A stretch of 64,000 bases of DNA from Mangrovibacillus cuniculi (lineage in GTDB: Bacteria; Bacillota; Bacilli; Bacillales; R1DC41): positions 1,012,501 through 1,076,500 of the forward strand of contig NZ_CP049742.1 in the NCBI RefSeq assembly GCF_015482585.1, written 5' to 3'. The position numbers and the translations under genes are program-made. This document shows, piece after piece, positions 3,345-40,175 of the stretch (position 1 is its first letter; every line of letters begins with the position of its first letter). The notes below the pieces were generated by a model that had not been told where the DNA came from, searched no databases, and was given only the letters and a program-made list of their open reading frames with translations.

Positions 3345-4388
3345 ATGAGTCAAAACGGATACCATGTAGCAGTAGTAGGAGCAACAGGAGCAGTAGGTCA
3401 GCAAATGCTACGTACATTAGAAGAAAAAAATTTTCCTGTTAGTAAACTGAAAGTATTATCTTCTGCTAGATCTGCAGGTTCTAAAATTCAATTTAATGGT
3501 ACAGAGTATACTGTGGAAGAAGCAACACCAGAGTCATTTGAAGGTGTTCAAATTGCATTGTTCAGTGCAGGTGGTTCTGTTTCCAAAGCGCTAGCTCCTG
3601 AAGCGGTAAAAAGAGGAGCAATAGTAGTAGATAATACAAGCGCATTTAGAATGGATGAAACAGTTCCTTTAGTAGTCCCTGAAGTAAATGAAGAAGATTT
3701 AAAGAGCCATAATGGAATTATTGCTAACCCGAACTGCTCTACAATTCAGATGGTTGTAGCATTAGAGCCTATCCGTCAAGCTCTAGGTCTTACTAAAGTT
3801 GTTGTATCTACTTACCAAGCTGTATCTGGTGCAGGGCAAGCGGCAATTGAAGAGTTACACCGTCAAACAAAAGAAATTGCAGAAGGAAATACGGTAGAGC
3901 CTAGTATTCTTCCAGTTAAATCTGCAGAAAAGCATTATCAAATCGCTTACAATGCCATTCCACAAATAGATGTGTTTACAGAGAATGGTTTCACATACGA
4001 AGAAATGAAGATGATTAATGAAACGAAGAAAATCATGCATATGCCAGAATTACATGTTTCGGCAACATGTGTGAGACTTCCAGTGGTTACAGGCCATTCT
4101 GAGTCTGTCTATATTGAAGTAGAAGATACGTCTAAATCAGTTGACGATATTCGTGTATTGTTATCAGGGGCTCCTGGTGTAACATTGCAAGATAACCCAG
4201 CTGAACAACTTTACCCAATGCCGGCACTAGCGGAAGGAAAACCAGATGTATTCGTTGGTCGTATCCGACAAGATCTTGATGCACCTAATGGTTTCCATTT
4301 GTGGGTAGTATCCGATAACTTATTAAAAGGTGCAGCTTGGAATTCTGTGCAAATCGCCGAGAGTCTCGTCAAATTAAAATTAGTGTAA
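3345..4388 (+). CDS. asd: Aspartate-semialdehyde dehydrogenase
   Basis: 347 residues. Reduces aspartyl phosphate to aspartate semialdehyde with NADPH, the branch point toward lysine/diaminopimelate/dipicolinate and toward threonine and methionine. The nucleotide-binding GATGAVGQ is at residues 12-19 and the catalytic cysteine is in NPNCSTIQM near residue 130. The start ATG has GGGGGAATG spacing upstream. It is followed after 36 bases by dapG, so the two are probably cotranscribed. Confidence 0.96.
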
Positions 4389-36799: not shown

Positions 36800-37231
36800 A
36801 TGGTAAAGTATACAAAGGACGATATTATTGCTCGTGCAGAAGAGCTTGCGAATATGATTTCTCAAATGGATGAGGTAGATTACTTTAAACGTGCGGAGGC
36901 ACAAATTCATGAGAATAAAAAAATTCGCGAAAAAATAGCGAGCATCAAGAGCTTACAAAAGCAAGCTGTCAACTTCCAACATTACGGTAAAGCAGAAGCA
37001 CTACGTATGGTAGAAGAAAAGATTGATAAGCTTCAAGCAGAACTGGATGATATTCCAGTAGTGCAAGAGTTTAAGCAGTCGCAACTAGATGTTAATGATC
37101 TATTGCAAATCGTAGCTAACACTATTTCCAACACAGTAACTGATAATATTATTAAAGAAACAGAAGGGGATTTATTACGTGGTGAAACAGGTTCACACGT
37201 GAAGAATAGCCCTGCAGGTAGCTGTTCTTAA
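36800..37231 (+). CDS. ricA: RicA (YmcA), YlbF/YmcA family
   Basis: 143 residues, the usual length, largely helical (YlbF-like). RicA with RicF and RicT binds RNase Y and directs mRNA maturation; loss blocks biofilm, competence and sporulation. A cysteine near the C-terminus (PAGSCS) may take part in the iron-sulfur ligation known for the complex. It is cotranscribed with miaB, two bases apart, and followed by a strong terminator. Confidence 0.92.
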   Translation: MVKYTKDDIIARAEELANMISQMDEVDYFKRAEAQIHENKKIREKIASIKSLQKQAVNFQHYGKAEALRMVEEKIDKLQAELDDIPVVQEFKQSQLDVNDLLQIVANTISNTVTDNIIKETEGDLLRGETGSHVKNSPAGSCS

Positions 37232-37677: not shown

Positions 37678-38223
37678 ATGTCAGATTATAGAGAGATTAT
37701 TACGAAAGCGGTCGTGGCGAAAGGACGCAAATTTACACAGTCTACGCACATTATCTGCCCACCTTATAAACCAACAAGTATCTTAGGTTGCTGGATTATT
37801 AACCACACCTTTGAAGCTAAAAAAGTTGGAAAGAAAGTTGAAGTTAGCGGATGTTATGACATCAATGTATGGTATTCCCACTCGGGTAACAAGAAAACTA
37901 GTGTAGTAACAGAAACAGTTCACTATACAGATGTAATCAAGTTAAAACACCGTGATCCAGATGCACTACATGATGATGAAGTAGTAGCAAGAGTATTGCA
38001 AAACCCTAACTGTACAGAAGCAGTAATATCTCCATGTGGTGAAAAGATTATTGTACACGTGGAAAGAGAATTCCTTGTAGAAGTTATCGGAGAAACAAAA
38101 GTATGCGTACTAGTAAATCCGCATGCTTGTGAGGACTGCGATGATGACGATTGGGAAGAAGAATTAGATGAAGAATTAGAAGACTTGGATCCTGATTTCT
38201 TAATTGGTGGAGAAGAAGAGTAA
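37678..38223 (+). CDS. cotE: Outer spore coat morphogenetic protein CotE
   Basis: 181 residues, the length of B. subtilis CotE. Begins [20 protein letters not shown] and has the conserved [17 protein letters not shown] segment. The tail is very acidic ([19 protein letters not shown]), as in the family. CotE guides assembly of the outer spore coat on the mother-cell side. GAGGAGG precedes ATG 37678. A terminator and a large repeat cluster follow. Confidence 0.96.
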
Positions 38224-38250
38224 CTAGGAGAGGACATCTCCTAGTTTTTT
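38222..38250 (+). terminator. Terminator after cotE
   Basis: AACTAGGAGA (38222-38231) with TCTCCTAGTT (38237-38246), then T-run. Confidence 0.85.
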
Positions 38251-38640
38251 GTTGCCCACGTGACGTGGGTACTCGTCGTTAGCCACGTGATGTGGCTAGC
38301 TCTTAGACGAGTCTCCTTACCATAACTCAAAAATTCGCAACAACTTGGCGTTGGTCGCGTGACGCGACCACTTGGCGTTAGCGACGTGAAGTCGCTTGAA
38401 ATTAGCGAAGTATCCGTGATGTGGCCGGTACTTAGCGAAGTATCCTTATTATTGTTTCAAAAATAGTGACGTGGGTACTCGTCGTTGGTCGCGTGATGCG
38501 ACCACTTGGCGTTAGCGACGTGAAGTCGCTGGAACCTAGCGAAGTATCTGTTATGTGGCTAGCTCTTAGACGAGTCTCCTTACCATAACTCAAAATTTCG
38601 CAACAACTTGGCGTTAGCGAAGTCTCGCTTCTATAATAAA
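38251..38640 (+). repeat. Cluster of nested and tandem structured repeats (copy E and relatives)
   Basis: Copy E (38251-38318): CCCAC/GTGGG hairpin, outer ACTCGTC (38271-38277)/GACGAGT (38306-38312), inner AGCCAC/GTGGCT. Next are hairpins GGTCGC/GCGACC (38353-38369) and AGCGAC/GTCGCT (38380-38396). A second full unit has ACTCGTC (38477-38483) pairing with GACGAGT (38569-38575) and encloses GGTCGC/GCGACC and a nested unit with AGCGAC/GTCGCT (38514-38530). Segment 38306-38352 recurs at 38569-38615 (offset 263). All inner loops are GTGAN. Confidence 0.8.
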
Positions 38641-38793: not shown

Positions 38794-38822
38794 TTGTGCA
38801 TTCACTCAATAAAGATTATAAT
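38794..38822 (+). promoter_or_regulatory. Sigma-A promoter of hom-thrC-thrB
   Basis: TTGTGC (38794-38799), 17 bases, consensus TATAAT (38817-38822). The leader is about 45 bases, too short for a riboswitch or T-box. Confidence 0.75.
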
Positions 38823-38874
38823 GTCCATTATAAACAAACAAATGTACATTATAAAAATACACAGGAGTGATGAC

Positions 38875-40175
38875 ATGAACCTAGAAAATAAAGAAATCAA
38901 AATCGGATTGTTAGGATTAGGGACTGTAGGTACTGGTGTTGTCACCCTGATTGATCGCCAACAAGAACAATTTCACCACTTGATAGGATGTCCAGTAAAG
39001 ATTACGAAAATATTAGTACAGGACTTAGAAAAAGAGAGAAATATAGAGTTTGAGCATAAAACATTAACATTAGATCCTTATGATATCGTTAATGATTCAG
39101 AGATAGATATAGTGATAGAGGTAATGGGGGAATGGATTATACCTATCAAATAATAGAGAAGGCGTTGCGAAATGGAAAGCATGTCGTAACGGCAAATAAA
39201 GACTTGATGGCAGAAAGAGGACCCGAATTATTACAACTTGCAGTAGATCACCATTGTGATTTGTTTTATGAAGCAAGTGTGGCAGGTGGAATACCTATCC
39301 TCCGCAGTGTTGTTGAAGGATTAGCATCAGATCGAATTCAAAAAATGATGGGAATAGTAAATGGTACAACTAATTACATGCTGACAAAAATGACAACACA
39401 AGGAAGAACATACGAAGAGGCATTAGTAGAAGCACAACATTTAGGCTTTGCAGAAGCAGATCCAACATCAGATGTAGAGGGGTTAGACGCAGCTAGAAAA
39501 ATGGCGATTCTCTCCACATTAGGATTTTCTATGCAGATTGCTCTTCAAAACGTGCAAGTCAAAGGAATCTCTTCCATTTCTAAAGAAGACATACAATACG
39601 CAGACCAATTAGGATATGTAATGAAACTTATTGGGCATGCAGTGCGATTGGATGACGAAGTTTCTATCTCAGTAGAACCGACTATGCTACCTAAACAACA
39701 TCCACTTGCTAATGTACACAACGAGTATAATGCCGTATATGTGTATGGAGAAGCTGTTGGTGAAACAATGTTTTATGGTCCAGGTGCAGGAAGCTTACCA
39801 ACGGCTACAGCTGTGGTGTCAGATCTAGTTGGTGTCATGAAAAATATGCGCTTAGGTGTAAACGGAAAAAGCGTGGTTCATCCACGTTATAGAAAGCAAA
39901 TAGCGCCTTTATCCAAGCAGTATTGTTCTATGTTTTTACGAGTGTTTGTGAAAGATGAAGTAGGAGTTTTAGCCAAAGTTACAAAGCTTTTTGCTGATCG
40001 AGAAGTAAGTTTTCAACGAATAGGGCAAACAATCCTACCAGAAAAATTATGTGATGTCGTCATTGTCACACACCAAGCCAATAAAGAATCGCTTCAACAA
40101 GTCTTACAAGATTTATCTAATGCCGACTATGTAGATCGTGTAGTCTCGTACTATAGAGTAGAAGGGGGAGAATAA
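38875..40175 (+). pseudogene. hom: Homoserine dehydrogenase, frame interrupted after residue 83
   Basis: ATG 38875 (CAGGAGTG upstream) encodes the NAD(P)-binding start with LGLGTVGTGVV. The frame breaks in the G-run 39126-39130; one more G gives EVMGGMDYTYQ and joins the rest. The repaired protein is 433 residues, exactly as in B. subtilis. The downstream frame is intact: VTANKDLMA, GIVNGTTNYM, EADPTSDVEGLDAARKM and a C-terminal ACT domain. It reduces aspartate semialdehyde to homoserine. It lies two bases before thrC in an intact operon, so a sequence error is likelier than a lost gene. Confidence 0.85.

What the first reader, a model, noticed from the sequence alone, without database searches (positions are those of the whole stretch)
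38251..38640. Nested and duplicated repeat cluster after cotE
Several units of the structured repeat are packed together. One unit (outer stem 38477-38483 with 38569-38575) encloses another (about 38504-38548), as if one copy had inserted into the loop of another, and 38306-38352 is repeated at 38569-38615. The cluster also contains the most divergent stems (GGTCGC, AGCGAC), each with an exact complement. This looks like repeated self-insertion or slippage of an active element.
Basis: seen in the sequence. Interest (0 to 1): 0.65.

Follow-up and report, generated by a model that had tools for sequence, protein, structure and literature searches.

The report
Repeat cluster inserted behind cotE's terminator
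The cluster is a stack of copies of a small hairpin-forming repeat catalogued as a possible small RNA, and in this genome nearly every copy sits exactly behind a transcription stop signal, which suggests a small mobile DNA element with a very precise landing site rather than an RNA gene.

Summary
The repeat is Rfam RF01690 (Bacillaceae-1 RNA), minus strand. A model of this genome's own copies finds at least 148. Leaving out 10 copies inside a longer repeat and 8 inner or second cluster units, 111 of 130 follow a called hairpin plus T-run and 11 the T-run end of a longer palindromic repeat, in one orientation. A strict terminator test gives 98 of 148 upstream, 2 of 148 on the mirror side and 105 of 20,000 at random places. 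Behind cotE, 50 of 56 relatives' loci have a called terminator; R1 finds no element in 69. The helices covary, yet G-U and A-C mispairs are about equal (80:71), against 94:7 in adjoining terminator stems. That fits a DNA palindrome better than an RNA gene. The nested unit occurs twice behind cotE and twice at a second locus with the same junctions, so it was probably formed once and copied. The mobilising enzyme is unknown: no RVT_1 protein, no association with Y1 transposases. Verdict: a terminator-linked variant of a known repeat family, probably a non-autonomous mobile element.

The parts
37678..38223 (+). cotE, outer spore coat protein E
   Evidence: Pfam CotE PF10628, E 2.3e-81
38224..38250 (+). 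intrinsic terminator of cotE (CTAGGAGA / TCTCCTAG stem, then TTTTTT)
   Evidence: sequence; hairpin scan; a terminator is called within 110 nt of the cotE stop in 50 of 56 relatives' loci against 35 of 1,000 random 110-nt stretches of the same loci
38251..38322 (-). unit U1, complete Bacillaceae-1 unit (in + orientation: hp2, P1', hp1, P1) abutting the terminator T-run
   Evidence: RF01690 49.2 bits at 38255-38322; R1 81.2 bits at 38253-38322
38336..38445 (-). nested unit N1: half hp2, outer P1' 38343-38349, inner unit 38353-38414, half hp1 38415-38426, outer P1 38435-38441
   Evidence: R1 74.5 bits at 38352-38421; RF01690 34.1 bits, just under the 35-bit cut-off; coordinates
38466..38579 (-). 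nested unit N2: half hp2 38466-38475, outer P1' 38477-38483, inner unit 38487-38548, half hp1 38549-38563, outer P1 38569-38575; outer parts like U1, inner part like N1
   Evidence: R1 68.3 bits at 38486-38555; direct repeats; coordinates
38599..38626 (-). remnant unit: half hp2, P1' 38606-38612, P1 38617-38623, hairpin 1 missing
   Evidence: sequence and coordinates; the R1 match at 38593-38633 is only 10.5 bits
37277..37348 (-). degenerate copy directly behind a hairpin plus T-run that follows the YlbF/YmcA-family gene (36800-37231)
   Evidence: R1 54.6 bits; hairpin and T-run visible; gene: PF06133
8909..8980 (-). further copy of the element
   Evidence: R1 86.6 bits
14913..14984 (-). further copy of the element
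   Evidence: R1 93 bits
31143..31214 (-). further copy of the element
   Evidence: R1 89.5 bits

Best explanation
The cluster is made of copies of a small non-autonomous mobile palindrome of about 72-75 bp, a lineage-specific form of Rfam Bacillaceae-1. SHOWN: in this genome most copies sit immediately 3' of intrinsic-terminator T-runs, in one orientation, with sharp edges and no excess of target duplications, and they range from near-consensus to strongly decayed. INFERRED: new copies are inserted at the terminator edge by a factor supplied in trans that recognises hairpin plus T-tract DNA or the terminating transcription complex. The three hairpins are kept because the mobilising step reads them as folded DNA, not because a small RNA is needed. 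For the cluster: U1 landed behind the cotE terminator; a nested composite (one unit inside the first hairpin of another, one arm lost) and U1 were then tandemly duplicated and partly homogenised, giving N1 and N2. Half-hairpins at the unit starts suggest that breakage at hairpin loops, followed by repair or strand switching, drove the duplications (inferred).
For: RF01690 match on the minus strand; 148 copies by own model. Terminator test 98/148 against 2/148 mirror side and 105/20,000 random; looser test 117/148, 3/148 and 100/5,000; categories. T at 99, 86 and 77% of the three positions before the R1 match, no such run after it (the 95 copies that carry the anchor motif). Four copies follow T-box leaders, so the rule is 'after a terminator', not 'after a gene'. 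A co-directional frame of 80 or more codons ends 15-250 nt upstream in 93 of 144 copies (median 47 nt), a convergent one in 36 of 144. Relatives: terminator behind cotE in 50 of 56 loci (random 35 of 1,000), R1 element in 0 of 69 (one chance-level match, 16.4 bits, E 0.32), and no R1 match at E<=0.01 in the Bacillus coahuilensis genome, G199 (150 of 516 candidates scored). Helices covary: 14 of 18 pairs changed on both sides, 0 of 500 shuffles as high. G-U:A-C 80:71 in elements, 94:7 in adjoining terminator stems. Nested unit twice at each of two loci, 73-89% identical, no internal gaps.
Against: No mobilising enzyme identified: no RVT_1 protein in a 98%-complete genome, and Y1 transposases do not track the repeat. 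No second strain of this species was available, so no insertion polymorphism was seen; the empty-site relatives are at most 77-78% identical in full or most of CotE. In 30 high-scoring copies from 30 other genomes the strict terminator test finds 0 and the loose one 5, so the targeting may be lineage-specific. Hairpin 2 alone shows a G-U excess (31:15). One of the five covariation measures, further pair types, was reached by 12 of 500 shuffles, and paralogues of one genome inflate covariation.
Confidence: 0.7

Rival explanations
1. It is what Rfam calls it: a structured small RNA gene in many copies, read from the minus strand.
For: RF01690 match above cut-off; conserved unpaired positions and strong covariation; some copies elsewhere lie just upstream of 16S genes (by eye).
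Against: G-U:A-C 80:71 against 94:7 in RNA stems beside it; read as Rfam draws it, the RNA is antisense to the adjoining terminator; many decayed copies (94.5 down to 30.2 bits); copy number from none to at least 24 within one genus, for example g7 and g38.
Confidence: 0.12
2. It is a functional accessory of terminators (insulator or back-up stop) kept by selection at gene ends.
For: Adjacency to the T-run and fixed orientation at about 110 terminators.
Against: It lies behind the U-tract, so terminated transcripts would lack it (inferred); decayed copies persist at terminators; this type is absent behind cotE in relatives that have a terminator there; no RNA-strand signature in its stems.
Confidence: 0.12
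3. It is a REP-type palindrome moved by a Y1 (RAYT) transposase.
For: One RAYT-like gene in the genome, 60.8 bits to NF047646, under its 80-bit cut-off; hairpin DNA and no target duplication would fit single-strand transposition (recalled).
Against: Across 199 genomes Y1 and RF01690 are not associated (82 both, 19 RF01690 only, 77 Y1 only, 21 neither; odds ratio 1.18, p 0.72), and 5 of 29 genomes at the copy-scoring cap have no Y1 hit; the RAYT-like gene lies beside a different 85-bp repeat array. Y1 is a broad domain, so a narrower subgroup was not tested.
Confidence: 0.15
4. It is a retroelement homing to terminators in the manner of group IIC introns.
For: Same landing rule: bacterial-C group II introns insert just after rho-independent terminators (PMC8919778, passages).
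Against: No RVT_1 domain found in the genome at E<=0.001; 72 nt with no group II intron match at Rfam's cut-offs in the window.
Confidence: 0.05
5. The nested part is an assembly error.
For: Repeats of this kind are assembly-prone; no reads were available.
Against: The same nested architecture occurs at a second locus with different stems and flanks; the assembly has only 2 contigs.
Confidence: 0.07

Closest known systems
Rfam RF01690, Bacillaceae-1 RNA
   Same: Same three-helix architecture and conserved unpaired positions; scores above the gathering cut-off
   Different: Hairpin loops RUCAC instead of the RUCCU of the model's consensus; hp2 often 2 nt longer; copies fixed to terminator edges; stems show no RNA-strand signature
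Bacterial-C (group IIC) introns
   Same: Insert immediately after rho-independent terminators (PMC8919778 passages)
   Different: No reverse transcriptase found; a 72-nt palindrome, no intron match in Rfam
REP / RAYT palindromes
   Same: Short dispersed palindromes in many copies (PMC3733652 abstract start)
   Different: No association with Y1 transposases here; three hairpins rather than one small palindrome
Pneumococcal SPRITE, BOX, RUP repeats
   Same: Small interspersed repeats; SPRITE is enriched close to 3' ends of genes and resembles a terminator (PMC3049150 passages)
   Different: SPRITE itself forms the terminator-like hairpin; here the element follows a separate, pre-existing terminator
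bcr1 of the Bacillus cereus group
   Same: Small dispersed repeat with mobile-element characteristics in Bacillus (named in PMC3733652 passages)
   Different: No sequence comparison was made here

Membership tests
RF01690 Bacillaceae-1 | covariance-model score at or above 35 bits | tested here: met
   49.2 bits at 38255-38322; 24 of 43 own-genome matches (E<=10) over the cut-off; the second cluster unit scores 34.1, just below, and the third is not listed
RF01690 Bacillaceae-1 | P1 helix enclosing hairpin 1, followed by hairpin 2 | tested here: met
   94.1% of cells paired in 34 copies
RF01690 Bacillaceae-1 | loop RUCCU in both hairpins (consensus line) | tested here: not met
   loops are RUCAC or close variants in this genome; RUCCU or RUCGU in other genomes
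RF01690 Bacillaceae-1 | transcribed as an RNA | not testable with these tools
   no expression data; G-U against A-C argues against RNA constraint
group IIC intron | inserts directly behind intrinsic terminators | tested here: met
group IIC intron | reverse transcriptase in the element or genome | tested here: not met
   0 RVT_1 hits at E<=0.001
REP/RAYT | presence tracks a Y1 (RAYT) transposase | tested here: not met
   odds ratio 1.18, p 0.72 over 199 genomes
REP/RAYT | the transposase gene is flanked by the repeat | tested here: not met
   L072 (C1:2434935-2438222) carries a different 85-bp tandem repeat and no R1 place lies in it
MITE | target-site duplication | tested here: not met
   crude test on 138 copies: 5-mers 8 observed, 7.7 expected; 6-mers 1 against 1.8; 7-mers 1 against 1.2
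MITE | terminal inverted repeats | not tested
   edges mapped but ends not compared for inverted repeats

The most novel reading that the evidence does not exclude
A family catalogued as a small RNA is in fact a terminator-homing DNA element without reverse transcriptase: a palindrome copied to the exact 3' edge of intrinsic terminators, possibly coupled to transcription termination, and able to nest in its own hairpins. It would be a second, unrelated solution to the 'safe site behind a terminator' strategy of group IIC introns.
Probability: 0.35. Interest if true: 0.8.

Novelty: new variant of a known kind. Interest (0 to 1): 0.58.

Why it matters
RF01690 is annotated as an sRNA. If this lineage's copies are terminator-targeted mobile palindromes, automatic sRNA calls for the family need revision, and there is an unidentified activity that inserts DNA with near single-base precision behind terminators. 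With at least 148 copies in one genome, target choice is directly open to analysis.

Tried and rejected
Reverse transcriptase in trans: no RVT_1 hit (other RT-linked families not searched). RAYT/Y1 as the mover: no association over 199 genomes and a different repeat beside the gene. Hairpin loops as the general landing site in other genomes: flank complementarity of 30 copies averages -9.1 against -8.0 (sd 0.6) kcal/mol for mismatched flanks, one of 40 shuffles reaching it, weak. A larger autonomous element with the same ends: end patterns (the list is cut short of its 105 places) were read for isolated ends; five left-end matches lie outside the 148 (912986, 1477410, 2148741, 2200116, 2697817), none pursued, and no distance test between unpaired ends was run. 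Same-species strains: none in the sets reached; R1 at E<=1e-11 matches only this genome among 397, with 12 candidates scored per genome. The upstream hairpin as part of the element: rejected, because its sequence differs from site to site (whose printout was cut in the middle) and a like hairpin stands behind cotE in relatives that lack the element.

Limits. One search scored 150 of 819 candidates, so 148 is a floor. The categories use looser rules than and a motif rule for the long repeat, so a few copies beside that repeat may be counted among the 111; the loose rule applied to all 148 gives 117. RF01690 itself, as opposed to R1, was sought in 33 of the 69 relatives' cotE loci: one copy, in L120 at 3795-3861, upstream of cotE and not behind it. 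The tandem 75/76-bp arrays were not pursued.

Full report
WHAT IS THERE. The outer stem, the enclosed unit, the 46-of-47 duplication and the exact complements of GGTCGC and AGCGAC are all present. Rfam names the repeat: RF01690, Bacillaceae-1 RNA, minus strand, 49.2 bits at 38255-38322 and 34.1 bits (cut-off 35) at 38354-38421. A covariance model, R1, was built from 34 of this genome's 43 Rfam matches (nine were left out of alignment A2: seven near-identical or duplicate copies, the second unit at C1:142 and the weakest match at C1:285636). It gives seven strong matches in the window (54.6 to 93 bits), all on the minus strand; the next best is 18.9 bits.

ANATOMY. In + orientation a unit reads: hairpin 2, P1', hairpin 1, P1, then an A+T-rich end. 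Behind cotE come U1 (38251-38322), nested unit N1 (38336-38445), nested unit N2 (38466-38579) and a remnant (38599-38626). In N1 and N2 a complete inner unit sits where hairpin 1 of the outer unit should be; only the loop and downstream arm of that hairpin remain. N2's outer parts match U1 and its inner part matches N1, as expected from tandem duplication with exchange. Every unit after U1 lacks the upstream arm of its first hairpin (by eye). The same is seen by eye in the second units at C1:1353, C1:1818, C1:1 and C1:382 kb, while at C1:843 and C1:1914 kb tandem copies of 75 and 76 bp begin at the downstream arm of hairpin 1.

THE NESTED UNIT IS NOT UNIQUE. At C1:1353.4-1353.6 kb there are two nested units with the same junctions. 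The four align over 110-114 positions without internal gaps at 73-89% identity. Shared junctions in different stem sequences point to one composite that was copied rather than repeated self-insertion; two independent events are not excluded. At the second locus the outer P1 arms do not match each other well (by eye), so the outer stem is not kept everywhere.

THE GENOME-WIDE RULE. R1 finds 148 copies in the 3.15-Mb genome (a floor: 150 of 819 candidates were scored). Sorted by what lies just upstream in the + orientation of the element: 111 behind a called hairpin plus T-run, 11 behind the T-run end of a longer palindromic repeat, 5 behind a T-run without a called hairpin, 8 inner or second cluster units, 10 in the centre of the longer repeat, 3 other. 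The strict detector gives 98 of 148 upstream, 2 of 148 on the mirror side, 105 of 20,000 random places and 1,031 of 19,220 random T-rich places. The looser detector gives 117 of 148, 3 of 148 and 100 of 5,000. T is at 99% of the last base before the R1 match, with no T-run behind it (95 copies with the anchor motif). There is no excess of target duplications. Four copies follow T-box leaders, so the landmark is the terminator itself. The strand of the copies changes with chromosome region, as gene orientation would predict (inferred).

RELATIVES. Of 56 cotE loci (L103-L158 of the 69 fetched), 50 have a called terminator within 110 nt of the stop, several with the same CTAGGA...TCCTAG core; random 110-nt stretches of the same loci give 35 of 1,000. 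R1 finds no element in the 69 loci; its one match, 16.4 bits with E 0.32, is at chance level. RF01690 itself was sought in 33 of the 69: one copy, in L120, upstream of cotE. Bacillus coahuilensis (L115, genome G199) has a terminator at the same place and no R1 match at E<=0.01 (150 of 516 candidates scored). At E<=1e-11 R1 matches only this genome among 397 (12 candidates scored each). RF01690 is in 101 of 199 genomes of the order at E<=0.001, with 1 to at least 24 copies (24 is the scoring cap). In 30 high-scoring copies from 30 of those genomes the strict terminator test finds 0 and the loose one 5: the terminator link is a feature of this lineage as far as tested.

RNA OR DNA? The helices covary: 14 of 18 pairs have changes on both sides, 0 of 500 shuffles as high, though 'further pair types' was reached by 12 of 500, and paralogues within one genome inflate such scores. 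If an RNA strand were selected, G-U should exceed A-C mispairs on that strand. Over 148 copies the counts are 80 G-U and 71 A-C (P1 21:27, hairpin 1 28:29, hairpin 2 31:15). In the stems of the adjoining terminators, which act as RNA, they are 94 and 7 (103 stems, T-run removed). This argues for a palindrome read as DNA, with hairpin 2 the least clear. 29 high-scoring copies from other genomes have too few mispairs to tell (2 G-U, 5 A-C).

WHO MOVES IT. Unknown. There is no RVT_1 protein. The one Y1 gene (L072, RAYT-like, below the NCBIfam cut-off) lies beside another repeat, and Y1 presence does not track RF01690 over 199 genomes (82 both, 19 RF01690 only, 77 Y1 only, 21 neither).

COMPARISON WITH WHAT IS KNOWN. 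Bacterial-C group II introns have the same landing rule (PMC8919778, passages) but are retroelements, and no RVT_1 protein was found here. Weinberg et al. 2010 list Bacillaceae-1 as an RNA, not cis-regulatory (PMC2864571, passage; author name recalled). BSGatlas reports 8 such structures absent from earlier Bacillus subtilis annotation resources (PMC8208703, passage), and a review lists it among sRNA families (PMC9029176, passages). Searches (13 of 13 papers listed; 15 of 270,411; 8 of 18; 12 of 582; 15 of 57; 10 of 397) list no title or abstract start on terminator-linked Bacillaceae-1 copies; of the 13 papers, passages of three were read and the rest were seen as listings, so this is weak evidence of absence.

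VERDICT. Real, not chance, and more interesting than the cluster alone: a terminator-linked, lineage-specific form of a known repeat family, most likely a non-autonomous mobile palindrome. Shown: identity, adjacency, orientation, copy number, relatives without it, strand-neutral mispairs. Inferred: mobility, the trans-acting factor and the duplication mechanism.

Noticed in passing
L280 and L284 (Bacillus sp. M6-12), 1501-1840: Two and three RF01690 copies lie between stretches that read like pieces of a 5S rRNA gene (by eye; cmscan called no 5S there, only a below-cut-off one at L284 1969-2030).
   Followed up: partly
L102, L281, L285, L288, L290, L295: RF01690-like copies lie just upstream of 16S rRNA genes in a few genomes (16S start recognised by eye).
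   Followed up: no
L072 1920-2488 (C1 about 2436.9-2437.4 kb): An 85-bp tandem array, 6.7 copies, beside the only Y1/RAYT-like gene found in the genome; possibly that enzyme's own repeat.
   Followed up: no
C1:577325, 1557464, 880194 and seven more: A second subfamily of the element sits in the centre of a longer palindromic repeat (gtctagctccagg...cgcgcgcctt); other copies lie at the T-run end of that repeat.
   Followed up: partly
C1:843.2-843.4 kb, C1:1914.8-1915.1 kb and C1:696.8 kb: At the first two places tandem copies of 75 and 76 bp (100% over 60 nt) start at the downstream arm of hairpin 1 and share a related linker; a similar linker is visible at the third.
   Followed up: partly
window 38794-40175: The homoserine dehydrogenase gene behind the cluster appears split into two overlapping frames (ORFs 38794-39153 and 39132-40175; the second matches the profile from position 85; the first was not searched): a frameshift or a sequencing error.
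   Followed up: no
C1:58-205 and C1:381979-382125: Two near-identical two-unit clusters with the same flanks, one at the very start of the contig: a genuine duplication or an assembly edge effect.
   Followed up: no
L120 (Lederbergia sp. NSJ-179) 3795-3861: An RF01690 copy (67.7 bits) just upstream of cotE in a relative, at a different place from the cluster studied here.
   Followed up: no
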